64,000 bases of DNA from Atriophallophorus winterbourni (taxonomy: Eukaryota; Platyhelminthes; Trematoda; Plagiorchiida; Microphallidae). The DNA lies in the NCBI GenBank assembly GCA_013407085.1, contig JACCGJ010001865.1:1-64000 (forward strand), given 5' to 3'. The position numbers were made by a program, and so were the translations under genes. The notes beneath the pieces are model-generated. The model searched no databases. It had not been told where the DNA came from and saw nothing but the letters and a program-made list of their open reading frames with translations. Below are positions 6,501-49,767 of this stretch, one piece after another (positions within the stretch are counted from its first letter, which is position 1; each line of letters opens with the position of its first letter).

Positions 6501-6514
6501 TCATGTTGTCGTCA

Positions 6515-6800: not shown

Positions 6801-6810
6801 GACAACCTTA

Positions 6811-6955: not shown

Positions 6956-7499
6956 ATTAGAGTTATAAAAGTTATTTTATGGTCCATAATATGTATAGTT
7001 ACTCAGTCAAATATTGATTTGTGAACAGGTATAGTCATTAGTTAACATCGATAGGCTGTAATGTTTCAATTGTAACTTATATGTGACCATGAAGTGTCTG
7101 TTAGGTTCGTTGCTTATCTCTGGTTCCTTTAACACGAAGCCGTATATATAGCATGAGTTCAAAAACAGAACCAAAGTCGAGATTTCCGTGGTAATTTGAA
7201 CAACTAATGTGTGCACCAATGAATCAGAGTTTACGTACATTTATCAAAATGTGAAACCATGTTAGAACACATACTTTGACCGTCTTACTTCGTATTAGCA
7301 GTGTCACCACAACCAACCAGGGAAACAGGTGCGCGATAATAACCCGCATTGTTACTTTCGGTGTAAAACAATTCAAAATAATGCTTTCGTAAGCATATTT
7401 ATGAGCAGAATAAAACTGACGGCAATTCACTGCGGAATGAAAAGGAAATTTTAATTGAGAAACCTTATCAAAATTTACACTGTATAAATACGAAAAGAT

Positions 7500-10979: not shown

Positions 10980-11110
10980 GAGCCCGGTGGTCGTTCCAAC
11001 GTTATCCAACAATGGCTCACAAGTGCAACTTGTTTACCATTTTACCCGGGTTTCAAGGCATGCGGAACCTGATAGTACTGACCCTGAATGATGAGTGCAA
11101 ACGGCACGAA
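10980..11110 (+). repeat. Retrozyme-like repeat copy, truncated inside the core
   Basis: The 5' flank (CTTGTTTACCATTTTACCC) and the box TGATGAGTGCAAACGGCACGAA are present. The copy stops just after GAA, and a short imperfect tandem of ATTCAAG units (about 11112-11133) follows. The GTGC/GCAC stem is preserved with one loop change. Confidence 0.6.
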
Positions 11111-16109: not shown

Positions 16110-16225
16110 TTGGCGTACCCACGATGAACTGAACCTAATCTTACTGTCTCCACCTGATGATGTCATACAGCCAAAAACCGGTAGTGGTGTGTAATTTCGG
16201 GGGATGTGAGCACCACCAAACATTG
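16110..16225 (+). repeat. Retrozyme-like repeat, partial copy
   Basis: Carries CCACCTGATGA at about 16151-16161, a mutated stem II, AAAA in place of GAAA, then ACCGGTAGTGG and the TGGTGTGTAA flank. The flank ends with GGGGGATGTGAGCACC. Confidence 0.65.
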
Positions 16226-16899
16226 AAATATATGTTTAATAATTATACAAGTTGAATAAAATAGTAACAATGAAAAATATAAACCAAATTGGCATGGAAA
16301 GACGTAGCAATTGAGACCTATGTTCCTCATGATATATATAATCTGAACTAACCGGTGCTGAGAAAATTATTGAATTACTGTGGGGTGTTGCTTTGAGACA
16401 GTACATAATAATGCGATTATTGGCATACATTATAACTAACGCAAATGTCAATGAGAGATTTTAAGGCACCTTGTATTAATTTGCAAATAGAGCGTGATTC
16501 AAAGGATAGAACCCTCGCCTAAAAGGCGCGTGTTTTAAGCACTATGTATTCGAAGTCCTTTTAAAACAAATATTGCCTCTGATGCTTAGATCTAGAGAAG
16601 GTAATTTATGCTAAAATTGGGATAAAATAATGATTGGGAACAATCTGTCTGTGTGAAAGAAAAATCTCTTGAAAGATCTTAGAATTTAATATCCTCGAAT
16701 AAAAATCTCATCACGTGACACTCGCAAATTGATTGGAAAATTGAATAATCGGTACCGGGAGGATCTATTTAGAAACAATTGAAAACTACAGATGTGTAAC
16801 TAGCCCATTGTCTCCATAAACCTCGAAATTTAGAGATTTTGATGACCATTTTCGATTTTTATGGACCGCAAAAACAGGAAAATTAATTTGAAAAAACAA

Positions 16900-17300
16900 G
16901 AGTTACTGAAGCGATCTTAATGTCTCAACCTGATGAAGGCAAACAGCCAGAAACCGCTAGTTCCTTGTAAGGGATGGGGATGTGAACACCGCAATATAAA
17001 AAGTATTTAAATTATTTCACTGAACTACGTGATTCGTTTTAGAATTCTCCATCAAAGAAGCTTTACATTTCAACCATTTTTACCATTCATCCACTGTATT
17101 ACGTGTCACGTAAACTAAGCACTCTGTATCCAAAAGATGACGGAAGACATTCAGAAACCGGTTGCTATTTGTAAGTGCAGTGGATGTGAACAGCGCGACA
17201 ATTTAGCCTTTTACGAATACGATCAGTGCTTGGTCAATCACTTTATGATTTTATTTCTAAAAACAATGTTTCGTAGTACGAAACCTCTTCAACATTGTCT
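16900..17300 (+). repeat. Two adjacent retrozyme-like partial copies
   Basis: The first (16905-17000) has CCTGATGAAGGCAAACAGCC, then AGAAACCG. Stem II GGC/GCC is intact but the ACCGGT is changed to ACCGCT. The second (about 17080-17300) has a damaged first box (AGATGACGG), then CAGAAACCGGTTGC, and runs on into the 3' flank with the TTCGTAGTACGAAACC segment. Confidence 0.6.
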
Positions 17301-17504
17301 TAAAATCCTAACTTTGTTTACCACTTGCGATTTCGAGGATAAATCCTCATTTGCAAATTGAAATTTAGCTTTTTTTATATTTTTATATGGGGACTAATCT
17401 AAGTCCCACAGTTGGTGGAATGTAGCACCGGTAACTGTTTGAAATATTTTTGCAACATTCCAATAACAGCATGATGGTAGTATTTATTTAAAGGCAGATT
17501 TTTA

Positions 17505-17890
17505 CCACTTACCATTTTTTACCACTTATCCACTGATTCAAGGTTCACGAAAGCTAATCTTACTTTCTCCACCTGATGACAGCAAACAGCCAGAAACCGG
17601 TTGTGATGTGTTAGTGCGAGGGATGTGAGCAACACATTGCTTTATTCATCCATGTTCGACTTGATCGCTCGACCAAGAATGACTATGTGATTTCGTAGTT
17701 GAACATCGTTGTATTTCTTTTACGAACCCTATTTAACAGTAGCATTCAATTATAACTTTGTTTATCACTAATATACCGTTTCAAATCTCACTGGATCTCA
17801 TCTCAATTTCTTCACTCGATGATGGCAATCAATCAGAAACCAGCTGTGGTGTATATATACGTTGAGTCTCAGAACCACAATGCATTAATC
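17505..17890 (+). repeat. Tandem pair of retrozyme-like copies
   Basis: The first copy has the near-consensus core CCACCTGATGACAGC, AAACA, GCCAGAAACCGGTTGTG at 17569-17606. It is followed by the whole 3' flank and then directly by a second unit (from about 17745) with TCGATGATGGCAATCAATC, AGAAACCAGCTGTGG. The join at ATTCAATTATAACTTTGTTT shows head-to-tail arrangement. Confidence 0.7.
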
Positions 17891-17953
17891 ACCATTCATT
17901 TTTTGTGAAAAGCGCCTCCAAAAAACCCACAATATTTACAATTTCAATTATAG

Positions 17954-18155: not shown

Positions 18156-20536
18156 GTAATTACAATAATCGATAAACGTATTTGAGGTAAGGTCTATGTA
18201 GTGTTCATTGTGTTTTGTGTGGCTAAATGAGCTGAGTTTTGAATAAATGGAAAATGAACATGAAACAGTGGTATTTTTGAGGTTTCCCGGGGTTCTTTTT
18301 CCAATACGATTTTAGTGGAATCTTCGCTGTAATTGTAAAAAAGCAAGCCGAAGAAATTACCTTATCATATCGTAAAAATTAATGTTGTTTGAAAACAGTA
18401 TCTTTCAATAAATGATCATATATCACGTGAGAGCTCGGTTCCTAGTAAAGTCGGAGTTAATAAAAGTTACAATATGATTTAAAGGCCTTATAGTTTAAAT
18501 CTATGGAACGGAAATACTCTATTTATGAAAGGAGATTTTCCTTGAGGACGAGGTTATACATCAACGTCGGTTCTATCCAAGTGGAAAGTTTATAAGTTTC
18601 TGATACGGAAAAGCCAATTCTTAAAGTAAACATTAAAATACTTGTTTGAGTGTCAATGCACTTTGTAGCATTGATTGTAAATATTAAACAATATTTAATC
18701 AGTCGCGTGAAAATCTATGTTTAATTCGAACTTGCAATATGCAACTTGGATGGTCTGGCATTGCTAGTAAAATGTAGAAGCAATGTATAAACGTAATTAT
18801 TTGAAAATTGAACACTTGTTTTATTTTTCTCACGAACGGTCAATAAATGGATTAAAAATTTTATAAAAAATCAATTAGAACATCATGAGTGAGCTTATAA
18901 TTTGTGAGTAACAGATTCAATCAATTTGTTCAGCAAACATATTTTACAAATCTACATATATTCGATCTTTATACTGACTTTGTAAATAATTTGAAAATTT
19001 TAAAGCCTAAAGGTGTTGGTGGTCTTACAATCGGTGAAATAAAAATATTACCCATATCAATGATAAATATCCCAATACCAAATCAAGATTTTCCAGTGAA
19101 CTTAATCTGAGACCACCATCAAAGTTCAAACGGTTGGTCTTGTTTGGAATCTTCCTGAGGTATCACGTTTGATCTGCCCATATTCTCAACGCATCCGGAT
19201 GCAAAATAGTTTCGGATAATTAGTTGGTAAAACTACTGAAACACTCTAGCACGTTTTCAGTTGTTTAAATAATATTCTGGAATAAGCATTTGCCATATTG
19301 GCCACTCAATCGAAAATGATCGTTTTTTAACCTTTAGTCATTTAATTTTTAAAACATTGTCATCTAAACTTCATGTTTTAATTACTTTAAAATCAAGGTA
19401 TTGAGAATTTTGTGAATTGTGGATACATGCATATGATAGTAGCTGCTCATCCTCCACTTCGCGACGCTGATTCATTTGTCGTTTTACTACAGTCGTCAAG
19501 GATTCGCGCAACATTTTATCAATCTTGATAAAAAATATATTTACAAATATGTTGTTTATCGATTCTAATCTAAAACAGATAATTACTTTAACACAAAGAT
19601 ATAATGTTCATACACAACAATAAGTCACGTATAGAGAATATGACAAACTTAAGTGTAAAAACAAAAAATGGTGAGTAAAAAGATAAACATCATTGGGTGT
19701 AACCATTATTCATGTTCAAATCTGTATATTGAGCAAATCAATAATGACTTGGTAAACACAATGTTTTATTGGGTGTTTTAAGACGAACTAGCTTGTACAC
19801 CTCTCATTAAAGTTCACGTGAATTTTCGCTAGAAAATATAAAACAATCTAATATTGCAAAACCTTTTCGGGGAATTGATTAGATTTTTTGGGAAAGGTTT
19901 TTAAAAAAACGAGGAAATGATACATTTGAATATTTTCATCCAGCAGTGCAATTTTTAATCACAATCACTTTTGTAATTACACCACTTTCAAAATATCAAG
20001 AGATAATATCCTAATTTTTGTATTTATGTTAGCAAACATAAAAAATCCAGTTAAAGAGTGTACAGTAAAAAGTAAGGAGATATTAAAATCATTTGCAGAT
20101 AATTGCAACTATGTAGTGATCAATATGCTTCATTCATCCTGGTTTAATCAAGATGGAAAGATTTTAGAATTGAAGAATATTTTCGAAAACATCAAAAATT
20201 GTAAGGGATGGGGATGTGAGCAACACATTACTTTGGTCAAAAATTGTCTCTTTGAAAAGCACTTTGATAAAAATGCATTTATTGAAACACACTTATAATT
20301 CGAGGAATACATGAAAAGGGAAGTCGAGCGATTATTTTACCGAATTAGCATGATATTTTATTGCTAAAATAGATTACTACATCAAACCTAGAATCTGGGC
20401 CCATAGACAAACGATATTTAAGCGTTTTTATTCATTTTGGCAAGAAAAGGCGAAAATTAGATGTTTCATTAAGCAAATAACCATAAATTAAAAGTTTCTT
20501 TTTCAACGTATTTTCATATTTGCCAAAACTTCACAG
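18156..20536 (+). other. Intron sequence with one short retrozyme-like scrap
   Basis: Mostly unrecognised AT-rich DNA. At 20196-20245 there is a fragment of the repeat 3' flank (GGGATGTGAGCAACACATTA type), lying inside an open frame at 20026-20298. That overlap argues against the frame being a gene. Confidence 0.5.
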
Positions 20537-21050: not shown

Positions 21051-22204
21051 ATAAAATTTAATAGAATATTTTCTACTTTCGGGGAAATTTGAATCATTTA
21101 TTTATATATTTGCTGTATGGAAGATCAGTTACCAGTTAATCTATATGAATGATTTTGCAATGATAAGAGAATTAATCTATTTATTCATCAAGAAATTTGT
21201 CTTCGTATTATACCAGTATAATTTCAAAAAATGTATACACATTCATTTATGTATCTATTTATAAATGTTGTCATTAACATATTGACGCGATTATAACCTC
21301 ACACTTCAAATAATTTAATCCCACTAAAAGATACTTTGATACGTTTTTCAGCCCTTTTATGTTTTCTCTGGAATCACTTATGTTATAAATACATTCCATT
21401 GTACTCTCCGTGTGGAATGATGTTCAAAAACAGTTACCACCTTTAATATTGAAGATTGCTTTGTTGGCACCAGATTACTGAAGCAATTTCTTCAGTTTAC
21501 GGTTAAGTGAAGCTTGCCTAAAGCACATAAGCAAATAACTATATACTGTTTAGCTTGCTAACAATAAATTGATTACTGACTCAATGCCAATTAAAAGGAT
21601 ATAGATATGTTGTTGCCTTTTGATGCAGTACATTAGGTACGTTGTCAACCTAACCAATATAACAACTTGCGCTCGGATGCCACTGTTAGGTAAAGTTGGT
21701 ACGATTAACCTGTTCGATCACATGAGCCCATACTTTCGTAGACTGGGTTTGAACTCATTACCATGAACAAAAAGGCTGGTGATTAAGCAAATTTGCTTCG
21801 CATGGTTGAGTGTTGTGTGCATGGTGGTTGAACAGAGTTTTTCTGCAAGATTGCTAAACTAATCTTTTTTGAAAACGGAGCGGTTGCACCTTTTGGGAAA
21901 CGTGTTCATTTGTATTCAGCAATATTCACTTATCAATAAAAATAGTAATTCGCTGTCACTCGCTAAGAAAGGGTAAAAAGAACATTGAAATCTTTTGCTT
22001 ACATCCCACGGAATACCATCTACCACCGGTTTCTGATTCACCGCTTTCATCGAGTAAAGACAGTGAAGATTATGTTCAGTGATCCCGAAAAAGTGCGAAA
22101 GTAGTAAACAAGATTTTGAAATATTCACGTGCAGCTTGAAGCCATAGAAAAATTTTGTGGAATGCGGTTTTGACGTACAAATCAATTGCCAGACGTAAGT
22201 AGGC
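21051..22204 (+). other. Intron sequence, nothing firm recognised
   Basis: AT-rich. A faint stretch around 21690-21765 (AACCTGTTCGATCAC … GGGTTTGAACTC) has some likeness to a tRNA-type B box but is too weak to call. Confidence 0.4.
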
Positions 22205-22612
22205 GGGCAAGGGATTAATCGAACCATCTAGGATCTGCTTTCATTTTAAACTCCCTTCGAATAGCTAGAGTTTCGTGAACTGAACAGTTCTATCTAGTAA
22301 AACATATGACTAGAAACCTCGGTGGTGAAACAGCCCAAGCCTATTCTCACAATTTAAATGAGTGATAATCTCTGCTCGACTAAACTAAGCTGGGCATCAA
22401 ATGTGCGTGCCTAGTGAGCCGGGCGCTGTAAAATGAACACAAACGTGTACACAAGCTACCTAACTCGACGCTCAGGAAACACCGCAAAAGAGGTTAGTTT
22501 GTTAAGACAGCACTACGGTGGCCATGGCAGCTGGAATCCGTTATTGAGTGTGTAACAACTCACCGGCCAAATCAATCTATCCTGAAAATGGATGGCGCTG
22601 GAGCGTCGGTCC
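22205..22612 (+). pseudogene. 28S rRNA pseudogene fragment
   Basis: Sequence recognised as large-subunit rRNA. It starts with ATTAATCGAACCATCTAG (rRNA: ACTAATCGAACCATCTAG). It goes on through AGTTCTATCTAGTAAA and AGCCTATTCTCA, with TTTAAATGAGT after it, and then CTCGACGCTCA. It ends with ACGGTGGCCATGG, GAGTGTGTAACAACTCACC, CTGAAAATGGATGGCGCTGG and AGCGTCGG. The order is that of the middle of nuclear 28S rRNA. Many substitutions and deletions relative to the conserved core show that it is a pseudogene, probably a retro- or repair-inserted piece. It lies in the intron between exons C and D, same strand as the gene. Confidence 0.88.
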
Positions 22613-23670
22613 TACACTGAATATTCACCGGTAAAATATGATTCGCGGACAAATCACCAGACTCATTTAGAAAGGTATAAGTGGTGCACATATCCTCAAA
22701 TTTTACACCCCCAAAACTGGTTTCTAGCTAATTGCTGTTATCAGATGAAAATAGTAAAGATAAGGTTCAATGAGCGTCAAAAATATGGAAAATTGGAAAA
22801 AAGTTCAGAGTTTGAAGTCCATGATGAATGAGTGTTGATACAAATCACGGAGTTATTTTGGGACAAATAAATATCATATTAATTACAATTACCAACTTAT
22901 TTTCATAAACATCATTTAAGAACGTAACTCATGCAGTTATTAAGCACATGTTTCTGACTAGGATGTTAATTCATGACAAGTGTATTTTTTTATAATATTG
23001 GAAATACTTAGAGCTATCCTAGAAGTAACTGCGCACACAATAAATATCAAAATCAGTAACCCCATGTTTCATGGAAAATGTGTCCCCACGTAAATTACAT
23101 TTTGATAACCAGTATCTTCCTAATTCAATAGGTGGCTAATAGTTTCGAGGTCACTTTAATTATATATTTGCTAGTGTACGTTGTCATTTGAATCAATGTT
23201 TCTTCTCGTCAGAAACGCATCATTTGTCTCTCTAAAAGAAATCAATGTAATGTTACGCTTGTAATAAATACACCAACATATCAAAACCCGTTTTCACCTT
23301 CTTTTAGTCATCTACAAGCATACTTCCAGTCAACCCTTTTAGGCACGTACACATTTGCACTCAAAAACTACTTCCAAATTGGATTTCCTACAATTAACTG
23401 CAGTGTTCGCATACAAAATCACAAAGCGATTTCTTAATTGCCTTTTTTCACTACCGCAAATATTCTAGTTCGCTATACATATGTCATGAGGTGACATTAA
23501 CTCCGAATGGCAAACCTTCAAAGTCATCGACTGTATCTTGTCAATTTTTTTACGATTGAAGCCAGATTCATTTCGATTCGCCCACGATTATTGAAAAAAT
23601 TGATTATTCTCATATTAATCGCTTCCCGATTTCGAATCAGGCGACACTGTCAAGTTCACATTCACTCCAG
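22613..23670 (+). other. Intron sequence with one minus-strand retrozyme-like scrap
   Basis: At 22683-22748 on minus lies a degraded core (CATCTGATAACAGC … AGAAACCAGTTTTGGGGGTG). The rest is unrecognised. The 3' end is the pyrimidine-rich acceptor of exon D (ttcacattcactccag). Confidence 0.5.
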
Positions 23671-23952: not shown

Positions 23953-24380
23953 GTAAGTTTTATGTATTTCGTTCAACCTTAGCGCTTCAAGCGTGCTCAG
24001 CTAAAGATCAAACAGGAATTAACGTTAATAAATTAATTCAGTGTATTTTAATGTCAGGAAATCAAAATATAAGAAATAAACAAAAATTTGAGCCAAAATT
24101 AAAGACGTGAAACCGTTGTTGATCTCACCGCGTGTGGTTAGATTAAACATAATGTTACAACAGCAGAATTATTATTAATGAACTCATTCGTAATTGTACG
24201 TTGTATGAGCACAAAGCTTCAAGGCTTCCTTTGATGATTACCTTTTCACTGTTTCATGTGGCAGCTGAACTGAGAAAATTGTCCTCATAATAGTAGGTCA
24301 AACAACCAGAAACATGTTAGCGAATTTAAGTTTGGACTGAGCAAATTATTTGAATATATTCGAGACCGATCGGGAGTCCA
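23953..24380 (+). other. Short intron segment, nothing recognised
   Basis: AT-rich intron sequence between exon D and the inverted repeat; no element seen. Confidence 0.45.
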
Positions 24381-24762: not shown

Positions 24763-24890
24763 GCGGACTGTTTAGTCATTCAAAAAGCTGTAGAACATGA
24801 AAATTCATGCGATTGTGATGTACATCCATGGTCGACATCGAACGAAGGAGGCCAACAACAACCACTATATATTGGTTCCGTTTAAGCTTC
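24763..24890 (+). mobile_element. RTE-type LINE fragment with zinc-finger-like motif
   Basis: Directly after the inverted repeat, plus frame CGLFSHSKSCRT matches the second half of the finger (IGLFSHxxxC). After a frame change CTSMVDIERRRPTTTT matches the C-terminus seen on minus at 43177-43230. Confidence 0.55.
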
Positions 24891-25003
24891 TGGAGCACTT
24901 GAAAGCAGAATTCTGTGATTATTTATTTAAACATCTTGACTCTTTATACAAACCCTAATTTACGAAGGCCTTCAAACATATCTTTACTTTATTCCTGTGG
25001 CAG

Positions 25004-25321: not shown

Positions 25322-25769
25322 GTATGTTAATTTGATAGGACTTATTCTGTCATGATGTTTTAGGTGTTTATTTAAATCGCTCACTATGCAAATGAGTTTA
25401 TTATACAATTTCGTAAGCCACATCAAATGTGAGGAACTCTAATGTTTATCCACCAAAGATTTTGAACGCTGCATCAGACTCTAGGGATTTTTGCATAAGG
25501 AATCATGTTGACAATCATTATCACAAAGTTTTGAAATCACGACATGGTTTCGAAAATGTGTGTGAAGCTTCTTCGGGTAATATTCTCACCATTTTGGTAC
25601 CAATTTATCAAGTGCGTTGAAAGCAATTGATAAAATTGAGCACTACACATAATTCCAAGTAATAAAGTCAAAACACTAATATACTGTTTTAATTTCGTCA
25701 GCTTGTTGCCAGACTCTGTTTAGCATTAGATGAGAAAGCTCTACATTCAAAATTATATGCAACAGTGTC
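25322..25769 (+). other. Intron sequence, nothing recognised
   Basis: A 64-codon open frame at 25429-25620 lacks convincing splice sites. No repeat seen. Confidence 0.4.
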
Positions 25770-26015
25770 AATCAAATATAACTTTGTTTACACTTATCAA
25801 CTGTTTCAAGTCTCACTGAACTCAATCTTACTGTCTGCACATGATGACGGCAAACAGCCAGAAACCGGTACTGGGGTGTAAGTGTGGAGAATGTGAGCAA
25901 CACAATACTTTGGTCATCCATAAGCGCCTTGAGATCTTGACCGTAAATCACGATGAAATTTTGTGTTTGAACAACGTGGTTCGTTGTATGAACCCTATGT
26001 AACAGCGGCATTCAA
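25770..26015 (+). repeat. Full-length retrozyme-like repeat unit
   Basis: A complete unit of about 240 bp, from ATATAACTTTGTTTACACTT to the start of the next ATTCAAGTATAGC, so both ends show the head-to-tail joint. The core at 25838-25874 reads CATGATGACGGC, AAACA, GCCAGAAACCGGTACTGGG: one change in the CTGATGA box, stem GGC/GCC, GAAA intact, ACCGGT intact. Confidence 0.75.
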
Positions 26016-26029
26016 GTATAGCGGATTTT

Positions 26030-26365: not shown

Positions 26366-27449
26366 AGCTAACCAATCAGAATAATAAAATTAATGACAGT
26401 TAAATATTGAAATGAAAGGTCCACTTAAATGAATTGGTTGAACTTCTTTGTACGTCGCTTGCTTTTAAGCATAAGTTCAGCTGGGATAGTTTCCCATCCT
26501 GTAGAATTGTAATGCCGATAAAACATAAATGTTGAGTAATCTTCAATCTATTTCGTATGTGTGGCCTAAAATGGAAATTTTCCTCTTTTCCAAATCTCAA
26601 TAGAACACAATTTGGCTGTATACAATATATTTTATTGTCCTATACGAAGTGCTCAAATCGTCACATGATTTAGCTGGTTATTTCACACGACTACAAAGGC
26701 AAAGTATTCTATGCCGAAATTGCACCAATCATGAGATTGTTGGCATTTTATTATTAACCAATGAAATTACAACAATATTAGCCAATGAGAAACACCAGAC
26801 ACCGGATCCTTCCTATCATTGGTAAAAGTTAACCACCAGGACAGAAGGTTATTGTGCTTTAACAATTGGGTTATTTGTGGTAAGCATATATTTGCTCATT
26901 TAATCTTCGTGATGGTAGCATATATTATTATCGTTTAGTGAATTGAATTGATTGGATAGAAAAAAATACGCTTAATTTAAAGTTTCAATTTCTAAACAGA
27001 CAAAAAGAAACTCTCACAATATCTAGAAACGCATATTCTTTATTCCGATGAAAATATACTCAACTTCAGGTTTTTAATCGATATAATCTAAATTATCTTA
27101 ATTCTAATAATGTTTCATCAAAAATTACATATGAAATAAGTGTCTGCGAAATTGGTATCAATTCTATTGTCAGCAACAGTTTCATTTTATGATGGTTTGT
27201 TTTAAGTTCTACCCAAAGTTTTAATAATACTCGGTTGCTATAGCTACAACCCGGTGAAAACTTTAAAGTGAAAACTTTCAATATCAACATTATATCGATC
27301 CATTCTGGTAAATATATTTTTCCTCAACAGAAAATGCCCAAACATTATTCAGTTTATAAAAATGTTAGACTTTGAAAACACTTTTTCTAGGACTCGCTGT
27401 TCAAAAACAGAATCACGAAGTAATTCCTTGTTGACCGCTCAAGGCGCTT
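26366..27449 (+). other. Intron sequence, nothing recognised
   Basis: AT-rich; no exon, RNA gene or repeat identified. Confidence 0.4.
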
Positions 27450-27625
27450 ATGGATGATCAAAGTAACGTGTTGCTCACATTCTCCGCACTTACACACCCC
27501 AACTGGTTTCTTGCTGTTGCCCTCATCAGGTTAAGACGGTAAGATTAGGTTCACTGAGCCTTGTAACAGTTGAAAAGTTGTAAACAAAGTTAGACTGTGA
27601 ACCCACTTTGGTACGTACAACGAAC
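27450..27625 (-). repeat. Retrozyme-like repeat copy, minus strand
   Basis: Core on minus at about 27496-27532: ACCTGATGAGGGC, AACA, GCAAGAAACCAGTTGGGG. The first box and GAAA are intact, stem II is weakened and ACCGGT is changed to ACCAGT. Flanks match the family. Confidence 0.65.
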
Positions 27626-28407
27626 CACGGTGATTTCATTAATTTATTATAGAAATTATTGTTCAAAAAGCACTTAAACTGACCACTCGAAACTATCCAT
27701 ATTTCGGTGAATATGACAGCACAACAATCTTCAACTTATCAGTTTTTGTAAGTTGAAATCATTCTATATTTTTCAGTTTATTTCTTGGCTAGATAAAACG
27801 TTCAGTTTCCAGCAATCGTTAATATTCGTTGTTTTATCATCGTTAACCACGCAGAATCTTTAAAAATAATTCTGATTTATAAAACGCATCAATCCTTCAA
27901 GTTAAATACATGTCTTTCGGGTCACATGCGCACACCAGATCGAGGCACTTGTTGGCAAGTAAAATAATATGTTCACTTGTAATTTGGCTGAAGAAAATTG
28001 CCTCCATTCTATGAGTTCTTTTTTCCAACATTCTCGTAAAAGTGTTCAAAATATTCGTCGCTGAATTTACGACACGAAATTCCACCCAATTATTTCAGTT
28101 TAATTACATCCGTTCAAACATATAACAGAATCTGAACAAAAATGAAAAATACCCGATCTTATGTGTATCCTCCCCAATTTAGTACGTTTATTTTCGATTG
28201 AAAAACTATTTGTTCAAATTTGATAACATTGCTCAAAACCTCAACGGTTTGCAACGATACCATCAAAAATTGATTTTTATATTTGACCATCTGTTGAATG
28301 ATTTTAAACTTGAAAAATAAATTTCAAAATTCGCGCTCATAAAATCTGTCCCGAGTTAACTCGAAAAAAGCATTACTGCACGATTCGCTCACATGCAATC
28401 AGACGAG
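27626..28407 (+). other. Intron sequence, nothing recognised
   Basis: AT-rich, no repeat identified. It ends with two alternative acceptors, 28402 and 28407, for exon F. Confidence 0.4.
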
Positions 28408-28626: not shown

Positions 28627-29874
28627 GTAAAGATGTCGGAGTTTTTGGCGGCGGACAAGTAACAATAGAGGTCGTGTGCCATCACCGGAAATTACGAAGA
28701 ATCAATGTTGACTACAGAAGGTTGGGATTTAGTATTCTACGGGATTCAATCTGAATGTGGTTTATGTATTTAACTTTGCAAATAATCACACGTTTATATT
28801 TTACACTTTGATCTTCAAGTGTGTGTTACTAACAGGAATTCTGAAAATTTTACTCATGGAGTGTGATTGATCAAGTTATGAGACCACTTTGATTCAAATC
28901 ATTCATGAATATATATCGGAATTTTAGTTGCTCATTCAGATAATTTTAATCCCCATATTATTTTATTTGGCAATCCACTACATATCTATTCATCTCATTG
29001 CAGTGAATAACTAATTTTCAATCTGATAAAAATTGTTCATATTGCGTATTCGCACAAGTAAAACAAGTGCGATATTTACAGATGGTATAACTGTTGGAAT
29101 ATTGAATTCCTAATGAGACCAATGCCAATTGAATATCCGAACCAGATATATTGTTGTCATTCCTAAATTCTGCATATGTATAACTCTCGAAAGGTTACTA
29201 TGGAGAGAGATTTGACAGGTTTAATCAATGGTGAACAAATGCTGATAATGCTTCGATGACAGCTGATTAGACAATACAAGAATACGGTATTGAATGAACA
29301 GGTACTGTAATTATTGATCGGGGTTAGGTTAGAACTTGTAACTCTTCTATCTGGAAGGCAAGCGTGTCCTGTCGTGTTCGATGATATTGGACCCCTGCAC
29401 TTTTGGTCACACTTTAAAAATCGTGGGTGTGAATCTTGGTGTTTATCGAAAAATGTATCGAATCAATTTGTGCAAACCATCCAAAAGATCATTGCGTGAC
29501 CCAAAGTTGCAGTTAATGTTCAGTAGGTCTTAAAACCAAATTACAATTTCACTTTTACTTGCATCCGAAACAATCAAAGAAGTTGAAGGCACATCCATCA
29601 CGCTTTGTGTTTTTGCACAAGATCAGGTTCTACTGAATCGGCTGAAGTTTGGAAAATATTAGCGTGCAATCAAGAATAACTTGTTCTAACCCCATCAACT
29701 TATACGCATTCGAAAAAGGGATTGCAAACAGGTTCTTCCAGCTTATCCCGAAAGTGGTGTCAATTTTTAAGCGTTGACAATCAACTAAATAGGGCGAAAC
29801 GTTGACGCATTTCATCCAACGTCACGTTATTGACAAATCATACAAGTTATAAGGACGTGAACAGATGAAATTCT
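28627..29874 (+). other. Intron sequence, nothing recognised
   Basis: AT-rich, with a short frame continuing past the exon F donor to about 28754 (unspliced read-through). No repeat identified. Confidence 0.4.
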
Positions 29875-29990
29875 AATATTCGTATTTGCATGCATGTCCA
29901 TCATACAGACCTCACGGCGAGTTTCGTGCTGTTTTCACCCAGCATTTACGGACAGTATAATCAAGAACCGCTTTATGCAGTTTTCAGTTA
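29875..29990 (-). repeat. Retrozyme-like repeat copy, degraded core
   Basis: Minus strand GGTGAAAACAGCACGAAAC keeps the GCACGAAA half of the core; the CTGATGA box is lost. The following CATGCATGCAAATACG flank is as in the GTC-type copies. Confidence 0.5.
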
Positions 29991-31339: not shown

Positions 31340-31640
31340 TTCAGAAAAAGGTTGTATTGACGGGAAACAGCCGGAAAGCGGTAGTGATATGCAAGGAATG
31401 TGGATGTGAGCACTACAATATATTCATCTTTTATAAACGCCTCGATCGCTTGACCAGGAGGTAAGTTGTGATTCCGTATTTGAGCATCGTTGTTCTTTGT
31501 AAGAATCCAATAAAACAGTAACTTTGTTTACTACTTTACCACTGTTCCAAGGCTCACTGAAACGGATCACCTGATGACGGCAATAAGCTATAAAACGGTA
31601 GTGGAGTGTAAGGGATGGGGATGTGAGCACGACAATATAA
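31340..31640 (+). repeat. Two joined retrozyme-like units
   Basis: The first is partial (GACGGGAAACAGCCGGAAAG … GGTAGTGATATG). The second carries CACCTGATGACGGC at about 31568-31581, a mutated loop, and TAAAACGGTAGTGG, so its GAAA box is destroyed. The two are linked head to tail through the ACAGTAACTTTGTTTACTAC joint. Confidence 0.65.
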
Positions 31641-32049
31641 TTTAAAAAGATTGATTACGTAAATAGTTCACAGAATGGAGAATAAAATAGTGTGCTCAAT
31701 CGCACTTCATAAGAGAAATTACTAAGTCAAAATTGCTAGAGATTGACTTGATCTAACAAATGAGGAAACTGAAACATTGATTTTCAATCAATTTGTCAAA
31801 TTAGATGTACACACAAAAGTTTCCCGTTTTCTGCTGTCTCTTATCTTTTAGCGAGGACAAAACTCCGGTTAAGCAAACACGAAAACAATTGATAAATGAA
31901 AAAATGATTTTGAAGCTTTTATCATTAAGATGATTTGGATTCCGAGAGTGATTAATTCGTAAACATAATTGTCCGTTTGTAAAATATTTCATTGGAAATT
32001 TCGTTGATTCAATTTTCATTGTTTTCAAACACGTTAATTTTTCACAATG
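31641..32049 (+). other. Intron sequence, nothing recognised
   Basis: No repeat or exon identified. Confidence 0.4.
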
Positions 32050-32760
32050 GAATTCAAGTTTAACTGTTTAGCAATCTATCACTGTTTCAAGGCTCAATGA
32101 ACCTAATCTTACTTCATCGAGTGCTTCACTAAGAATCACTATGTGATTCCGTGTTTGAAAATCGTGGTTCGTTGTACGGATCAAATGTAACAGTGGCATT
32201 CAAGTATAACTTTGTTTACCACTTATCCACTGTCTCAAGGCTCACTGAACCTAATCTTACTGTCTCCACCTGATGACGGCAAACAGCCAGAAACCGTTAG
32301 TGGTATGTAATTTCGGGGGATGTAAGCAACACAATACTTCGGTCATCCATTAGCGCTTAACTAGGAATCACTAAATGATTCTGTATTTGAATACCGTGGT
32401 TCGTTGCATGAACCCTATTTAACAGTGTGTTCAATGAAAAACAGTTTATAGACGGTATAACTTTCAAGCATTTTCAGTTTAGAAACCGGTTGTCGTCTAT
32501 AAGTCTGGGGATTCAAATCACACATTACTTTGATCATCCACGGGCGATTTCAGTGCTTGAAAAGGAATTACTTTTTGATTCTATTTGAACATGGTGTTTC
32601 GTTATACGAAATGGCATTTAAGTTTAACTTTGATTGCCGCTATTCCACTGCTTCAAGGCTCACTTATCCTAATCTCAGCATCTCCACTTGAAACACCATA
32701 AACCGATTGTGGTGTGTAAGTGGAGGAGGAGGATGTGGGCAACACAATAATTGTACGATA
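32050..32760 (+). repeat. Tandem array of at least three retrozyme-like units
   Basis: Unit 1 (32050-32192) lacks the middle, including the core: TAATCTTACT runs straight into CATCGAGTGCTTCAC. Unit 2 (32193-32420, about 229 bp) has CCACCTGATGACGGC, AAACA, GCCAGAAACCGTTAGTGG at 32266-32304. Unit 3 (32421-32755) is diverged, with the AGAAACCGGTTGTCG part kept and a second partial unit fused behind it. The array shows that the repeat amplifies as head-to-tail multimers. Confidence 0.75.
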
Positions 32761-33843: not shown

Positions 33844-35562
33844 GTAAGATAGAATGCAGTTCACGTATAGAATTTTAACACTACAATTGGAATATACATG
33901 CCTTGAAACAGTGGAGAAATGATAAGCAAGATGCATGAACCTGGTGGAACTTGAAGCAATAAAATAATTCAATCGTTAGAATTTCTTATACTGCAATAGG
34001 TACTAATACATTTTCTTTATACATGATTTTACCCAGTACATCATAAAAGTCATGTAATGAAAAGTCAAAGTTTGGATTGTAGTTACAATTGAATCGAACT
34101 TGTGGGGTGTCATTCTTTTTAATTAGAATAAAATCAATAAATAAACGCGAACATATGTAGACCAATGAATAGCACTGCTGATCTGAAATTTATTCAAAAC
34201 GAAAACCCAGACATTCCCAAAACTGGTGAAAAATCTATCATATGATAAAATCCTAATGCCATTTATCCTACTAAGCTTTGCATAGAGATTAGAATTAAAT
34301 TAGCCTCAATCTTTCAACGCAGATAGTATAATTGATACGCGATTCCAAATGGTTATCAAACGAATGGAAAAAATTAAAATCGAGTCTCATGTTGATAAAC
34401 AAAATCGAGCAATAACGGCAACTACCAAAATTATCTGAATGAACTTTTCCTTGAATATTCATTTCCTTCATACATGATTCCCCATAACCTATGTTTGCTA
34501 AATTGAGCCAGTGGTTTTCTCCATTCTTGATTTACATCAAACAGAAACCACAAAACTTTCCAGTGGTTCGTAACACATTCGTAAAAATTCTGGTTTATTT
34601 TATCCAACTCTCATCAGTTCATTCTCAACTCAATGCTATCGCGCGCACCTATTTAACAATATACATCTAGCATGCTATCTGTTCATAAATGTATAGTTGT
34701 ATATGTATTGGTGTCCATTTTTGGGAATTTCTTCCAGAGTTCCATGCTGGAACTTGTGCTTACGATGAAAAGGTCTCGCGTGTGTAACCTACATGTTCGA
34801 TAAATACAAAATACATTTACAAATACATTTTGTTGCTAATGTACCAGACAGTCAAGTTATGAGCATATGGTCTTGCGAAATATTGTTACTTCAAGCTCAA
34901 ATTTCATGTAAATTGTAGATCATGCCATAGCGATTTAAAAAGGGGTTATTTTTGTTCCGCAAATATTAATTTGTAATATCATATGACATCATCGCGCTTC
35001 ACCAATGTTCGCAGGAAAATAATTTATTATATAGCAAGTCGTTATTTAATATATTAAAATACCTTTGACTTTAGTATCAAATTGCCGTCTTTATTTCAGT
35101 AATATTTCAAATATATCAGCAGATTTAAACACCGTGTCTATTTAAATGATAATCTAACTTTAGAGTGACTGCAAATTTTATGTCCGAGTACTAAGTTTCC
35201 ACAATTTATAGGCTGAAAGCAATTAATCTTACAATATTAATCTAATTGTGATAAAGAGAAAACATCCAGTGGTACGCCTATGGTATCTATGAGAAATGCA
35301 GAAAATTAAGATCCAGATAGATCTATTAAAAGACGTCTGTGGTTTTATACCATGAGGAATCGTACTTATTTTTAATGAGAAGAATGATTTTTCTCGGTAA
35401 TCCACTTAGAAATATCAACTTATGTCTCTCTCAAATCTCGGAAACAAGTAGCAGCAATATTCCAAAACACTGTGTATGAATACCAATTACATTATGTAGC
35501 ATTTTTCCCAGGAACTTTGATCAATATCTTTCAATGTGTTATTAACTTTTAATCGTTTTCAG
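33844..35562 (+). other. Intron sequence with one possible small exon
   Basis: No repeats recognised. A possible small exon lies at 34738-34783 (separate entry). Confidence 0.45.
34738..34783 (+). CDS. Possible 46-nt exon of the large gene
   Basis: A strong tract (ccatttttgggaatttcttccag) precedes it. Using the weak donor TGT followed by gtaacc, its length is 1 mod 3 and it would convert phase 0 (exon H) to phase 1 (exon I), which is exactly what is missing. It would encode SSMLELVLTMKRSRV. The stronger donor at 34772 would give the wrong phase. Supported only by phase logic. Confidence 0.35.
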
Positions 35563-37179: not shown

Positions 37180-37330
37180 CGAACGAAAATGCTCATTTGC
37201 GTGCATTTCCACCGCATACACTCTACGACCGGTTTCATGTTGTTTCAACTCATCATGTTGGGACAGTAGGATCAGGATCCGCATGACCTGAATCACTGGC
37301 ATACCAGCGCAAATCTTGTCAACGTGTCTC
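37180..37330 (-). repeat. Retrozyme-like repeat copy (GTC type)
   Basis: Minus core at about 37221-37262: CATGATGAGTTG, AAA, CAACATGAAACCGGTCGTAG. The first box has one change (ATGATGA), stem II is a perfect GTTG/CAAC, and GAAA plus ACCGGTC are intact. Flank TGCACGCAAATGAGC as in the other copies. Confidence 0.65.
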
Positions 37331-39920: not shown

Positions 39921-40449
39921 AAAGTGGCAATAACTGCTATGTAGTTTGGGTTTGCGAGACAGTTGTGCCAGGTGATCAACCAGATCAACTAGACGAGAGA
40001 CGAAGCCCACCGAGACAGAGAACAGAACAACACAGGATGGATATGAAATGACCAAGCCGAGACTCAGGACACAGGTTCGCAGGTCCTAGAGCTGGACAAG
40101 GCCAGTGTTTATATAAAGAACACAACGGGGTGTGCGAATTAAGCGGTAAGGACATTGAAGCGTAAGGTTAGCACGTGTCACAGCATGCATCCGCAATGTT
40201 AGGATAATGACATTACCAAGGTCGCACGTGTCATGGGTGAGGACGCCTCACCCAACAATAACAAACCCGGTAAAGCGTACCACTGTTTCATTTGAATAGT
40301 TCTTATCTGTTGTGTGTAATAATACTCAGAGAACACAGCATCATATTGATTGAATGAGCTGAATATAATTGAAAACTCAACCAAATCTACTATGGATGAT
40401 TCGAGTTATTCTGTGAATGAGTCAATTTATCTTTATGATGGAAACAGAA
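39921..40449 (+). other. Unclassified intron sequence behind the SINE
   Basis: Less AT-rich than its surroundings from 39921 to about 40290 (for example CGAAGCCCACCGAGACAG and GTGAGGACGCCTCACCC). It could be another repeat, but no domain or second copy was found in this window. Confidence 0.35.
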
Positions 40450-40840
40450 AATATGTTGAAAATGCTCAATTGCACGCATTTCAGTCTCACGCACGAAACC
40501 CACGACCGGTTGCGTCGTGTTTTCACTCATCAGCATCTATATGAGCGTAGTAGTGGAGTGTAAGTTCGAGGGATGTGAACAACACATCACTTTGGTCATC
40601 CATAAGCGCCTTGAGTGCTTGACCACGAATCACTTTGTGATTCTGTGTTTGAACATTGTGGTTCGTTGTACGAACCCTATGCAACAGTGGCATTCAAGTA
40701 TCACCTTGTTTACCACTTATCCACTGTTTCAAGGCTCAATGAAATTAATCTTACTGTCTGCACCGGATGACGGCAAACAGCCAGAAATCGGTGGTGGTGT
40801 GTAAGTGCGGGGAATGTGAGCAACACATTACTTAAATCAA
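40450..40840 (+). repeat. Composite of a minus- and a plus-strand retrozyme-like unit
   Basis: On minus (40450-40535): CTGATGAGTG, AAAA, CACGACGCAACCGGTCGTGG, so box and stem are intact while GAAA is replaced. On plus (40535-40840): the unit begins inside the core region (GTAGTAGTGGAGTGTAAG), runs through the complete flank, and ends with CGGATGACGGCAAACAGCC, AGAAATCGG at about 40765-40791. The two orientations abut near 40535. Confidence 0.65.
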
Positions 40841-41062
40841 TTATTCTGTTTTAATTTGCTTTAAATACGAATTTTAATTTATAGCCCACAAACCCTCGTT
40901 GTGGTCGAACGGTTTTGCTTTAACGTGATATCCTGGTTTGAATTAAATCCATGTCCAAATCTAGCAGAATAATAATTTTATTTTTTAAAATATTCACTGA
41001 TTTTTTCTCTACTATTCGCATCATATTTGATCGTTTGAATAACTATCAATTTGATTGAACAG

Positions 41063-42590: not shown

Positions 42591-43169
42591 GTAAGTTTCG
42601 AAATTGTAATGTATTCTGTGAGATGTTTGAATTGATATCAGAGATTTTGGGTTGGTGTTGATGATCGATTATTCGTAGAGCTGATTCAACGTTAAATCAA
42701 ACGAGAATATTGAGATTTTGTTTTAAATATCATGAACTGATCAAGATTGTACTTTGTTCATTAGTTTTTATATATCTTATCCCATATCTATATATATATA
42801 TATATATAGTAGACATATATATAATGCTTTGGCTTTCCTCCAATAACACGCTGTTCTGGTAGAATGCATAGGTTGAGGTAGGTTAAAATGTTCCAGCATA
42901 AATTATAAACAATTTTTGTTAAATTTACTGATAAAATATCGTTCGGTTTTTGGTCAGGTAAGATAAATTTTTGTGTGCAGATGGCTGCGCATTATATTCT
43001 TTTGTTCTGACTTGATTTTCCTGTTATCTCTGACACTTTCTACGTATGCGACTCGAAAAGATCGCCGTACCATCCCCATGCAACAATGACCTAAAAGTCC
43101 AAACATTTTAACCATTTTCACACTGTTACAAGGCAGGCGGATCCTGATCGTAGTCTCTACTTGATCGGT
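42591..43169 (+). other. Intron sequence with AT microsatellite
   Basis: (AT)n at about 42787-42825. Otherwise nothing recognised. Confidence 0.5.
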
Positions 43170-47224: not shown

Positions 47225-47470
47225 GATATTAGTATTGGCATGTTTTACATTGAGCACGCACACACCCCACGACCCGTTTCATGTTGTTTGCACTCATCAG
47301 TAGAGTAAGGGTAATCAGTATTAGGATCCCCATGACTAGACACAATGAAGACATCATTCCCAAGGTTCAAACAATTTACATTTCCTTGAATTTGCATCAC
47401 ACTTCACCCCACGATCAGTTTCGTGCGGTTTGTGCTCATCCCAGAAGGACTGTACAATCAGAACAATGTC
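47225..47470 (-). repeat. Two minus-strand retrozyme-like copies, one with a nearly complete hammerhead core
   Basis: The copy at 47225-47340 has the best GTC-type core (47265-47304 on minus): CTGATGA intact, stem II GTGC/ACAT with loop AAACA (G-U, U-A and G-C pairs), GAAA intact, then ACGGGTC and GTGGGG, so the cleavage triplet would be GTC between 47271 and 47270. The copy at 47390-47470 has GGGATGAGCAC, AAACC, GCACGAAACTGATCGTGGGG and is more damaged. Confidence 0.7.
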
Positions 47471-47489
47471 AACCTTGTCAAACAGTGGT

Positions 47490-47700
47490 TTAAAAGTTAA
47501 AACCGTGTTCACCATTTTTTTTCTGTTTCAAGCGCATGCAGATCGGGATGGTACTGCACCAACCTAATGAGTGTGCAAACAGCACAATACCGGTCGTGGG
47601 GTGTGTCTGTATGTGCGATGGAAATGCGTGCAAATAAGGATTATTGTTCCAGATGTGTGGTACATGTGATTAAACGGTTTGGTCGTGCCACTTTGTTTAT
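47490..47700 (+). repeat. Plus-strand retrozyme-like copy (GTC type)
   Basis: 5' flank CACCATTTTTTTTCTGTTTC, core CCTAATGAGTGTGC, AAACA, GCACAATACCGGTCGTGGGG at about 47571-47606. The box and GAAA each carry a change; stem II and ACCGGTC are intact. The flank continues as ATGCGTGCAAATAAGGA and GGTTTGGTCGTGCCACTTTG. Confidence 0.65.
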
Positions 47701-48560: not shown

Positions 48561-49079
48561 GTCACAGCACTCCATTCGATCTTTTATACTTCTATTTGCA
48601 TTTTTCAATCTAGTCAGCAAGCCAACCCACCAGTCATGCACGCTTGTAAACATTTATCCAAACATTTCTCTATTCTTTTTAATCTATACATCGATATTAT
48701 CGTCTAAATGAGTTCGAAAATTCATGGAGCTGATCACATGATCAGTAATCTCTCTGAAAACGCACACATGATTATGAATAACTTTTAGTACCAATTTATT
48801 CGGTTCGGAAGCAAAACCAGGATCATCACATATGTAATCACACGCCTTACGGATTGAGCAACTGATCACCATTTCAACGATAGTGTTTAACCACGCATGA
48901 ACGTTTCTCCGAAATGGAACATTTTGTGTAGCATTGTACTCCCTAGCAGACGACAAGGAGCCAGCAATTTCTTTGGTGTCCGTCCCACCTATCCGATCCT
49001 GATGTCGGATGTTCCCATCAGATATAGTGTAGGCTTTTATAAAAACTCCTAGAAAAACTTACAAGTGAATAAAGGCTTA
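48561..49079 (+). other. Intron sequence, nothing recognised
   Basis: No repeat or exon identified. Confidence 0.4.
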
Positions 49080-49480
49080 AACAAGTTTATACTTGAATGC
49101 CGGTGTTACTTAGGGTTTGTACAACGAACCAAGGTTTAGAATCTCAGAGCGGATGAACAAAGTGGTGTTGGTCACATCCCCCGCACTTACACTCCACTAC
49201 CGGTTTCTGGCTGTTTGCCGTCATCAGGTGGAGACAGTGAGATTAGGTTCAGTGAGCCTTGAAACAGTGGATAAATGGTAACCGAGTGTATACTTGAATG
49301 CCACTGTTGCATAGGGTTCGTACAACGAACCACAATGTTAAAATACAGAATCACATAGTGATTCCTAATCAAGCACTCGAGACGCTCATTGATGACCAAA
49401 GTGATATGTTGCTCACAAAGAGACAGAAACCGGTAGTGGTTTGTAAGTGAGGAGATGTGAGCAACAGTTTACTTTGATTA
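49080..49480 (-). repeat. Head-to-tail retrozyme-like units, one with consensus core
   Basis: Minus strand. The core at 49194-49231 is the family consensus: CCAC, CTGATGA, CGGC-AAACA-GCCA, GAAA, ACCGGTA, GTGG. The outer CCAC and GTGG can pair as stem I; stem II has GGC/GCC with a C-A mismatch at the bottom; the would-be cleavage triplet is GTA. Two ends with ACTTGAATGCC (49091 and 49293) show the tandem joint. A short plus-strand piece (AGAAACCGGTAGTGG) follows at about 49424-49438. Confidence 0.8.
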
Positions 49481-49767
49481 AAAGAGTGCGTTCTGAAAAC
49501 CAGCGAAAATTAACTTATGTACAACTTATGTCACCTCGTTTTGTTTGTTATGCTTAAAAAGCTGCTAGTTTTATAAATTTATAACTAAGAATAAGGAAAC
49601 AAAAACAAAAAGTGTTTGCTAAATAAACCGCAAGTGCACATCGGGCAAGAAAGGTCATGGCTTATACTTATTCGTAGCTACTCATAAGCAACAAACCTTC
49701 GAAATAATCACAAAACATGATCAGTTCTGCCCCAAATATTTATCAAATACTTATTTCTTCTTTGTAG

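What the first reader, a model, noticed from the sequence alone, without database searches (positions are those of the whole stretch)
49194..49231. Repeat family with a hammerhead-ribozyme-like core: candidate retrozymes
About 20 copies of a roughly 230-bp unit on both strands share a central block. The consensus order is CCAC, CTGATGA, a short GGC/GCC (or GTGC/GCAC) stem with loop AAACA, GAAA, ACCGGT, A or C, GTGG. This is the order of the hammerhead: stem I, CUGAUGA, stem II, GAAA, stem III, NUH cleavage site, stem I. The conservation of exactly these boxes, while flanks drift, argues for function in the founder element. Hammerheads of this sort are known from schistosome repeats, newt satellites, Penelope-like elements and animal retrozymes. 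That this exact family is described is unknown to me.
Basis: partly seen in the sequence, partly recalled or inferred. Interest (0 to 1): 0.88.

Follow-up and report, generated by a model that had tools for sequence, protein, structure and literature searches.

The report
Hammerhead repeats of a Penelope-like element
A 241-base repeat found at 29 places in this stretch of (likely flatworm) DNA has at its centre the layout of a hammerhead, a self-cutting RNA; it is likely an old non-coding relative of Penelope-like jumping elements, and its RNA is predicted to have cut itself in pairs, which makes it a new example of a known kind.

Summary
A 241-bp unit recurs as 40 segments in 29 loci on both strands; 25 segments, in 21 loci, span the core. 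Subfamily B has a canonical minimal type I hammerhead; subfamily A, which includes 49194-49231, mostly has a C.A mismatch at 10.1/11.1. The A and B consensuses differ at 43 of 155 comparable positions but at 0 of 11 catalytic ones, and 11 changes among 36 stem bases leave 16 (A) and 18 (B) of 18 pairs standard. Rfam support is sub-threshold. Stem III is the palindrome ACCGGT, so cleavage would need two paired copies. Descent from a hammerhead is near certain; activity is untested. 'Retrozyme' is half right: the dimer-type core, head-to-head copies, and A copies that stop 33-46 nt past the cut (7 of 14 breaks) resemble Penelope pseudo-LTRs with a 'tail' better, though no Penelope gene was found in the ORFs tested. 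The window's only Rfam-grade hammerhead (47041-47085) belongs to another, SINE-like repeat. The rest of the genome could not be searched (the server did not complete).

The parts
49194..49231 (-). reported core, subfamily A: stem I CCAC (49228-49231) / GTGG (49194-49197); CTGATGA 49221-49227; stem II GGC 49217-49219 / GCC 49209-49211 with loop AAACA 49212-49216; C.A mismatch 49220/49208; GAA 49205-49207; palindrome ACCGGT 49199-49204; H17 = A at 49198; predicted cut between 49198 and 49197
49186..49241 (-). distal stem I of the same copy: CTCAC 49237-49241 with GTAAG 49186-49190 (4 of 5 pairs standard in this copy)
49064..49417 (-). A locus, head-to-tail, more than one unit (one search gives 49088-49417, 1.37 units; one search gives 49064-49417)
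49406..49496 (+). A half-copy (5' half of the core missing), head-to-head with the previous one
40550..40845 (+). A locus, 1.2 units; core 40764-40793; homology ends about 40 nt past the cut
40448..40533 (-). B half-copy starting at CTGATGA, head-to-head with the previous A copy; core 40504-40533
32041..32752 (+). A locus, about 2.9 units long with internal deletions; cores 32270-32299 and 32688-32708
31358..31639 (+). A locus, 1.2 units; core 31571-31600; homology ends about 37 nt past the cut
25753..26020 (+). A locus, 1.1 units; core 25841-25870
27393..27629 (-). A locus, 1 unit; core 27501-27529
17515..17898 (+). A locus, 1.6 units in phase; cores 17573-17602 and 17816-17845
16897..17310 (+). 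A copies; cores 16930-16959 and 17134-17163
16128..16225 (+). A copy; core 16154-16183; homology ends about 33 nt past the cut
20199..20266 (+). A fragment that begins just past the cut; homology ends about 46 nt past the cut
21668..21734 (-). fragment of the unit
21942..22115 (-). A copy, core 22024-22053; on one side of a 28S-like fragment
22586..22846 (-). A copy, core 22715-22744; on the other side of the 28S-like fragment (its last part overlaps the rRNA match and is doubtful)
23381..23434 (-). fragment of the unit
24195..24348 (+). degenerate copy; core 24289-24318
24861..24980 (+). fragment of the unit without core
31823..31909 (-). fragment of the unit
33878..33932 (-). fragment of the unit
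5676..5909 (-). B copy; core 5777-5806
6330..6478 (-). B copy, 5' half of core missing
6792..6959 (+). B-like copy; core 6894-6923
10856..11110 (+). B locus, 1.06 units in phase; core 10856-10885
29842..29966 (-). B copy; core 29916-29945
37182..37301 (-). B copy; core 37227-37256
43060..43165 (+). B copy truncated in the core
47245..47557 (-). B copies; cores 47271-47300 and 47413-47442
47467..47660 (+). B copy; core 47564-47595, head-to-head with the previous ones

Best explanation
The 29 loci are copies of a 241-bp repeat whose centre has the layout of a minimal type I hammerhead; it is most likely a non-coding derivative of a Penelope-like retroelement (its pseudo-LTR plus 'tail'), and its RNA is predicted to have cut itself with two neighbouring hammerheads acting as a pair. 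Shown: the repeat, its two subfamilies, head-to-tail joins in phase, the core, and preserved pairing between the subfamily consensuses. Inferred: transcripts with two or more units pair through the palindrome ACCGGU (stem III) and cut after GGU-A or GGU-U (A) or GGU-C (B), giving 241-nt units; a Penelope-type enzyme encoded elsewhere then reverse transcribes uncut multimers, or re-closed circles, starting about 35-45 nt past the cut near the hairpin-like stretch TGTGAGCAACACA, and inserts the DNA in AT-rich sites, often 5'-truncated or with an inverted piece. The copies seen here are decayed fossils. Subfamily A, with a mismatch (mostly C.A) at the base of stem II, would cut more slowly than B unless a protein or the pairing of two copies helps.
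For: Chance: 0.00 expected for the core patterns. Selection on the source lineage: A and B consensuses differ at 43 of 155 comparable positions, at 0 of 11 catalytic ones (P 0.02). Eleven of 36 stem bases differ, yet 16 of 18 (A) and 18 of 18 (B) pairs are standard, P 0.0018 starting from B and 0.00001 starting from A. With only the 16 pairs standard in both, 7 changes leave all intact, P 0.0002-0.0013 (dropping two pairs conditions on the outcome). Pair 10.2/11.2 is G-C in A and T-A in B; distal pair 6/61 is T-A in A and G-T in B. On all 25 cores 66.6% of cells pair, against 62.6% in shuffles (2 of 500 as high) and 31.8-41.7% in slid versions. Rfam: for slice 49150-49270 Hammerhead_HH9 is the only match up to E 10, 20.1 bits, E 0.0051. 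Fold: two copies of the 49198 core fold as the double hammerhead with a 6-bp ACCGGU/ACCGGU stem III. Tandem: 4 loci have joins exactly in phase (17515-17898, 10856-11110, 40550-40845, 49417-49088) and 32041-32752 holds one such join. Penelope likeness: 7 of 14 breaks of homology downstream of A cores (20 cores or 3' halves examined) fall at +33 to +46, P 0.006 for a 33-nt window chosen after the fact, with 40-nt flanks 60-82% AT, five of the seven 75% or more, window 62.5%; with uniform scoring the 3' ends of 6 of 19 A loci lie at +37 to +62; three head-to-head places. Published parallels: a 31-bp tail reaching codon 22 and head-to-head pLTRs (PMC3846280, passages), AT-rich target cleavage and internal start of reverse transcription (PMC11167929, passages).
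Against: In the whole-window scan the family reaches no Rfam threshold and is absent even at E up to 5. Five short slices held seven cores; three cores match a hammerhead family, two of them only at E about 1, and slices 32240-32340 and 17545-17640 give no hammerhead match; all are below gathering scores. On the 25 cores the covariation score, the number of pairs changed on both sides and the number of pair types do not beat shuffles (87, 299 and 307 of 500 reach them; cells changed on both sides 30 of 500). Only 1 of 4 dimers tested folds as the double hammerhead by minimum energy, and none of six monomer cores, the Rfam-grade one included, folds as a full hammerhead. The circular unit is not unusually stable (z -1.15, 32 of 200 shuffles as low). 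Of 14 A cores with both bases, 10.1/11.1 is C.A in 8, U-A in 2, A.A in 2 and G.A in 2; H17 is T in 7 and G in 2 of 16 (counted by eye). A model of the 25 cores does not match the Rfam-grade hammerhead at 47041. No Penelope protein turned up, but the look was partial: 20 of the 112 stop-to-stop ORFs of 75 aa or more went to Pfam (1 RVT_1 of non-LTR type, 1 sub-threshold DUF3435), and one narrow GIY-YIG regex found nothing. One candidate target-site duplication in 8 loci, low-complexity. In one search, 5' starts bunch at +99 to +108 (7 of 29) and +149 to +156 (5 of 29), which this model does not explain.
Confidence: 0.57

Rival explanations
1. A non-LTR retrozyme in the strict sense: the 241-nt unit would circulate as a self-cut, ligated RNA circle with no structural tie to a Penelope pseudo-LTR.
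For: Unit size, low GC, lack of a long reading frame and head-to-tail copies fit the description of animal retrozymes (150-450 bp tandem repeats; 220-245 bp in a coral; section read). Stem I has an internal loop and a distal helix, so loop-loop contacts are conceivable.
Against: Stem III has no room for a monomer hairpin of more than one pair; half of the 3' breaks lie just past the cut; head-to-head copies; the circular fold is not clearly more stable than shuffles.
Confidence: 0.27
2. The hammerhead mattered only in subfamily B; A spread after losing it, with the ribozyme as a passenger.
For: Mostly C.A at 10.1/11.1, and A, T or G at H17, among A copies; HHR cleavage was not needed for insertion in vitro in an anole Penelope element (passages).
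Against: All 11 catalytic bases and ACCGGT are intact in the A consensus, and within A the catalytic columns deviate less than the rest (27 of 199 against 935 of 3855 cells). Axolotl hammerheads with a U.U mismatch at the base of helix II do cleave, better as dimers (section read).
Confidence: 0.3
3. A SINE-like element with a polymerase III promoter and a hammerhead, like SMalpha, mobilised by a LINE.
For: SMalpha-type elements with type I hammerheads are known in schistosomes, and this window holds a repeat of that look 2 kb away.
Against: By eye no full B box in the A unit (only GGTTCG), no simple tail at the 3' breaks, tandem units.
Confidence: 0.08
4. Chance resemblance in an ordinary repeat that was never a ribozyme.
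For: Sub-threshold Rfam scores and ordinary covariation scores on single copies.
Against: Two subfamilies about 28% apart keep every catalytic base and the pairing in their consensuses.
Confidence: 0.04

Closest known systems
Minimal type I hammerheads in pseudo-LTRs of Penelope-like elements (Cervera and de la Pena 2014 and Lunse 2017 are cited in papers seen, not held; anole PAc, PMC11167929, passages; rotifer Penelope, PMC3846280, passages)
   Same: short palindromic stem III that suits dimer cleavage, position in a roughly 200-bp repeat unit, many 3' ends tens of nt past the cut, head-to-head and partial tandem copies, mostly AT-rich flanks
   Different: no reverse transcriptase/GIY-YIG gene seen; units join to each other directly; stem II of subfamily A mostly lacks the 10.1-11.1 pair
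Metazoan non-LTR retrozymes (PMC7229834, two sections and passages)
   Same: tandem 241-bp non-coding units, GC below 50%, type I hammerhead
   Different: minimal stem III; circular RNA not tested; preferred 3' break past the cut
Axolotl HHR_Amex2 (PMC7229834, section read)
   Same: mismatch at the base of helix II in a highly amplified family
   Different: U.U there, mostly C.A here; stem III there has two pairs with a tetraloop
SMalpha / W-elements of Schistosoma (PMC8490949, one section and passages)
   Same: flatworm repeats with type I hammerheads
   Different: those are SINE-like or W-chromosome satellites; the SINE-like counterpart in this window is the separate repeat at 47041

Membership tests
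Hammerhead ribozyme, type I | invariant core CUGANGA...GAAA with U16.1 and H17 (not G) | tested here: met
   all 11 catalytic bases in both consensuses; H17 is A/T in 14 and G in 2 of 16 A cores, C in 8 and A in 1 of 9 B cores
Hammerhead ribozyme, type I | three helices, open end at stem I | tested here: met
   B 18 of 18 and A 16 of 18 standard pairs in the consensus; A lacks 10.1-11.1; single copies are more broken (66.6% of cells)
Hammerhead ribozyme, type I | Rfam model match at gathering score | tested here: not met
   best 20.1 bits against 52; whole window none for this family
Hammerhead ribozyme, type I | self-cleavage | not testable with these tools
   needs in vitro transcription
Penelope-like element | ORF with reverse transcriptase and GIY-YIG endonuclease | tested here: not met
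   none among 20 of 112 ORFs sent to Pfam nor by motif regexes; a non-autonomous copy need not carry it; the genome could not be searched
Penelope-like element | pseudo-LTR with minimal hammerhead, short or absent helix III | tested here: met
   palindrome ACCGGT without loop; that the unit is a pseudo-LTR is inferred
Penelope-like element | 3' tail past the start of the ORF / hammerhead | tested here: inconclusive
   7 of 14 breaks at +33 to +46 after the cut, window chosen after the fact
Penelope-like element | head-to-head inverted or partial tandem copies | tested here: met
   three head-to-head places; four loci plus one join inside 32041-32752 with exact in-phase tandem joins
Penelope-like element | 8-10 bp target-site duplication (as seen in rotifer copies) | tested here: inconclusive
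   one low-complexity candidate in 8 loci
Non-LTR retrozyme | tandem non-coding 150-450 bp unit, GC below 50% | tested here: met
   241 bp; GC at most 0.424 in the 4-kb blocks of the window
Non-LTR retrozyme | canonical hammerhead with loop 1-loop 2 contacts | tested here: inconclusive
   internal loop and distal stem present; contacts cannot be seen
Non-LTR retrozyme | circular RNA in vivo | not testable with these tools
   no RNA data
SMalpha-type SINE | tRNA-like internal promoter | tested here: inconclusive
   only GGTTCG by eye in the A unit; motif recalled

The most novel reading that the evidence does not exclude
These repeats are the physical link between retrozymes and Penelope elements: a 241-nt hammerhead RNA circle or concatemer that a Penelope enzyme copies by starting inside the unit, 35-45 nt past the ribozyme cut, so that the ribozyme makes and re-closes the template while the site of initiation sets the 3' end. 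Subfamily A would be a hammerhead that gave up the 10.1-11.1 pair and works only as a pair or with the protein.
Probability: 0.25. Interest if true: 0.7.

Novelty: new member of a known kind. Interest (0 to 1): 0.45.

Why it matters
Animal retrozymes are non-autonomous, and a review names Penelope elements only as likely helpers and calls the role of their minimal hammerheads a mystery (PMC7761336, passages). A family that combines a retrozyme-sized tandem unit with Penelope-like ends gives a concrete set of sequences on which to test who moves whom, and subfamily A tests how much of stem II a hammerhead can lose. It also puts two hammerhead repeats without evident sequence kinship, plus a possible twister, within about 13 kb of one (probably flatworm) genome.

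Tried and rejected
Cleavage-site ends: copy 40550 begins at GTA|GTGG, which suggested that inserts start at the cut; over 29 loci only this one 5' end lies within 3 nt of the cut, so dropped. The 5' starts bunch instead at +99 to +108 (7 of 29) and +149 to +156 (5 of 29); not explained. Copy ends from the mixed A/B profile (15 of 29 3' ends at +26 to +69) partly reflect weak conservation there (locus 5909-5676 runs on past its apparent end), so only A copies with a change-point test were used. By eye copies 32688 and 49406 also stop near +38 to +44, but the change-point put them at +134 and +115, and they are not counted; copy 17816 broke at +10.

Open frame from the ATG inside CTGATGA (52 codons in the A consensus): ATG is forced by the hammerhead core, A/B changes are not biased to third codon positions (by eye), and a search with the frame of copy 25841 found no homologue (it could only see proteins of similar length). 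Not used as evidence.

Other collections: the core pattern has no exact match in viral contigs or genome contigs. Model R1, built from the 25 cores, finds all 25 again by construction plus 8 more up to E 10, three of them below 0.01: 11070-11142 and 6443-6506 (overlapping loci already counted) and 50430-50491 (E 0.0031), which lacks CTGATGA and is not counted; it does not find the hammerhead at 47041. Papers: the listings show no description of this family (14, 54, 69 and 78 list only part of their hits); key Penelope/hammerhead papers are not held.

Rows placed or dropped by hand: the A/B split was made by me from the core letters; segment 24861-24980 has no core and was put with B by hand; pairs 28-40 and 14-55 were left out only. 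The organism was not identified: other named hits carry bacterial MAG labels and a bird, and only the best 120 of 795 were listed.

Full report
What is there. The window is AT-rich DNA (GC 0.34-0.42 in 4-kb blocks) with a eukaryotic 28S-like fragment. A 489-aa reverse transcriptase ORF at 60841-62310 has a Dicrocoelium dendriticum (fluke) protein as its best relative with an organism name, 44% identical (other named hits carry bacterial MAG labels and a bird), so a flatworm is likely but not shown. Core patterns occur 2 and 12 times, against 0.00 expected in shuffles. Iterated nhmmer from the 49 kb copy found 40 segments of a 241-bp unit, chained into 29 loci, 15 plus and 14 minus; 25 segments, in 21 loci, span the core, 16 of which I placed in subfamily A and 9 in B.

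Two subfamilies. Consensus A is CTTACTGTCTCCAC-CTGATGA-CGGC-AAACA-GCCA-GAAACCGGT-A-GTGGTGTGTAAG. Consensus B has GTGC/GCAC, C before the cut, and CCCTAC/GTGGGG around it. In hammerhead numbering B is canonical. A has G-C where B has U-A at 10.2/11.2, and C.A where B has G-C at 10.1/11.1; by copy, the A cores have C.A in 8, U-A in 2, A.A in 2 and G.A in 2 of the 14 with both bases, and H17 is A in 7, T in 7, G in 2 of 16 (by eye), so the 'A' of the consensus is a tie. Stem I continues past an internal loop into a second helix, CTTAC/GTAAG in A, which in B still pairs throughout, with three wobble pairs. Stem III is ACC/GGT without a loop, so a monomer could form one pair with a CCGG loop at most, while two copies would form six pairs.

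Is it a hammerhead? The strongest test compares the two subfamily consensuses, because single copies are decayed. They differ at 43 of 155 comparable positions, at 0 of 11 catalytic ones (P 0.02). Of 36 paired bases 11 differ, yet 16 and 18 of 18 pairs remain standard; random placement of 11 changes reaches this in 0.18% (from B) or 0.001% (from A) of trials. The 16-pair version gives 0.02-0.13%. Among single copies the signal is weak: on all 25 cores 66.6% of cells pair, against 62.6% in shuffles (2 of 500 as high) and 32-42% in slid versions, but the covariation score and two counts of changed pairs are ordinary (87, 299 and 307 of 500). Catalytic columns deviate in 16.1% of cells, neighbours in 22.5%. 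Rfam finds no hit for this family in the whole window, even at E up to 5. In five short slices holding seven cores, three cores match a hammerhead family: HH9 at 20.1 bits, E 0.0051, as the only match for the reported copy, Hammerhead_1 at 15.2 and 13.7 bits, E about 1, for two B copies; two A slices return none. Two copies of the reported core co-fold exactly as a double hammerhead; dimers of cores 17573, 47564 and 37227 do not, nor does any of six monomer cores fold as a full hammerhead. Descent from a hammerhead is near certain in my view; present activity of these copies is doubtful and untested.

What moved it? Units are joined head to tail exactly in phase in four loci (17515-17898, 10856-11110, 40550-40845, 49417-49088), and 32041-32752 is about 2.9 units long with one exact join, so the templates were likely multimers or circles. 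Downstream of the cut, 14 of 20 A cores or half-cores lose homology within 185 nt, and 7 of these 14 do so at +33 to +46, at or just behind the stretch TGTG-AGCAA-CACA (a hairpin by eye); the next 40 nt are 60-82% AT, five of seven being 75% or more. The other cores run on into the next unit or break elsewhere. Three places are head-to-head: 40533-/40550+, 49417-/49406+ and 47557-47245-/47467+. In the rotifer Penelope elements of PMC3846280 (passages), pseudo-LTRs of about 180-220 bp carry a 31-bp tail that brings the included coding stretch to 22 codons, head-to-head copies are common, and foreign DNA is captured between pseudo-LTRs. Here the 3' breaks lie 60-73 nt from the ATG inside CTGATGA (the cut is 27 nt from its A), that is 20-24 codons, and a 28S-like fragment lies between two same-strand pieces of the unit. 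In the anole element PAc reverse transcription starts inside the RNA, ends of genomic copies match that start, the enzyme prefers AT-rich DNA, and the hammerhead is not needed for insertion in vitro and cleaves only with the protein (PMC11167929, passages). These parallels favour a Penelope-type origin, but no Penelope gene was seen in a partial look, and the whole genome could not be searched.

Known or new. Hammerheads in flatworm repeats, in Penelope pseudo-LTRs and in retrozymes are known. I saw no description of this family in the listings, but the library lacks main papers of the field. The mismatched base of stem II has a published parallel in axolotl HHR_Amex2 (U.U). So this is a new member of a known kind, with features that bear on how retrozymes and Penelope elements are linked.

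A neighbour. The only hammerhead that passes Rfam's gathering score, 47041-47085 (38.5 bits), lies in another repeat (46787-47175 and 39512-39900, 84% identical, and a weaker copy at 48800-49031) with a tRNA B-box-like GGTTCGAATC upstream (motif recalled). It looks like an SMalpha-type SINE and should not be confused with the family described here.

Noticed in passing
47041-47085 (+); repeat 46787-47175, 39512-39900, 48800-49031 (-): Rfam-grade type I hammerhead (38.5 bits) in a separate SINE-like repeat with a tRNA B-box-like stretch; the second copy's core is mutated.
   Followed up: partly
22088-22704: Divergent 28S rRNA-like fragment (168 bits) lying between two same-strand pieces of the hammerhead unit, as if captured between them.
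   Followed up: partly
59960-60014 (-): Sub-threshold twister-P1 match (34.4 bits, gathering 67.2, E 0.0011) inside ORF 59658-60089 (-), which looks by eye like the 3' end of a non-LTR reverse transcriptase (no Pfam match).
   Followed up: no
24381-24759: 175-nt inverted repeat, 98% complementary, 29-nt spacer; also gives sub-threshold microRNA-precursor matches on both strands.
   Followed up: no
60841-62310 (+): 489-aa non-LTR reverse transcriptase ORF (RVT_1), 44-45% identical to its two best relatives.
   Followed up: partly
11563-14233: Direct duplication of about 1.1 kb, spaced about 1.58 kb, 81-92% identical in blocks.
   Followed up: no
41059-42594 (+): 511-aa ORF with membrane-like stretches (by eye); one unnamed relative (32% identity, 586 aa), no Pfam match.
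   Followed up: partly
29 loci of the repeat: 5' starts of copies bunch at +99 to +108 (7 of 29) and +149 to +156 (5 of 29) from the cut; unexplained, may partly be an alignment effect.
   Followed up: no
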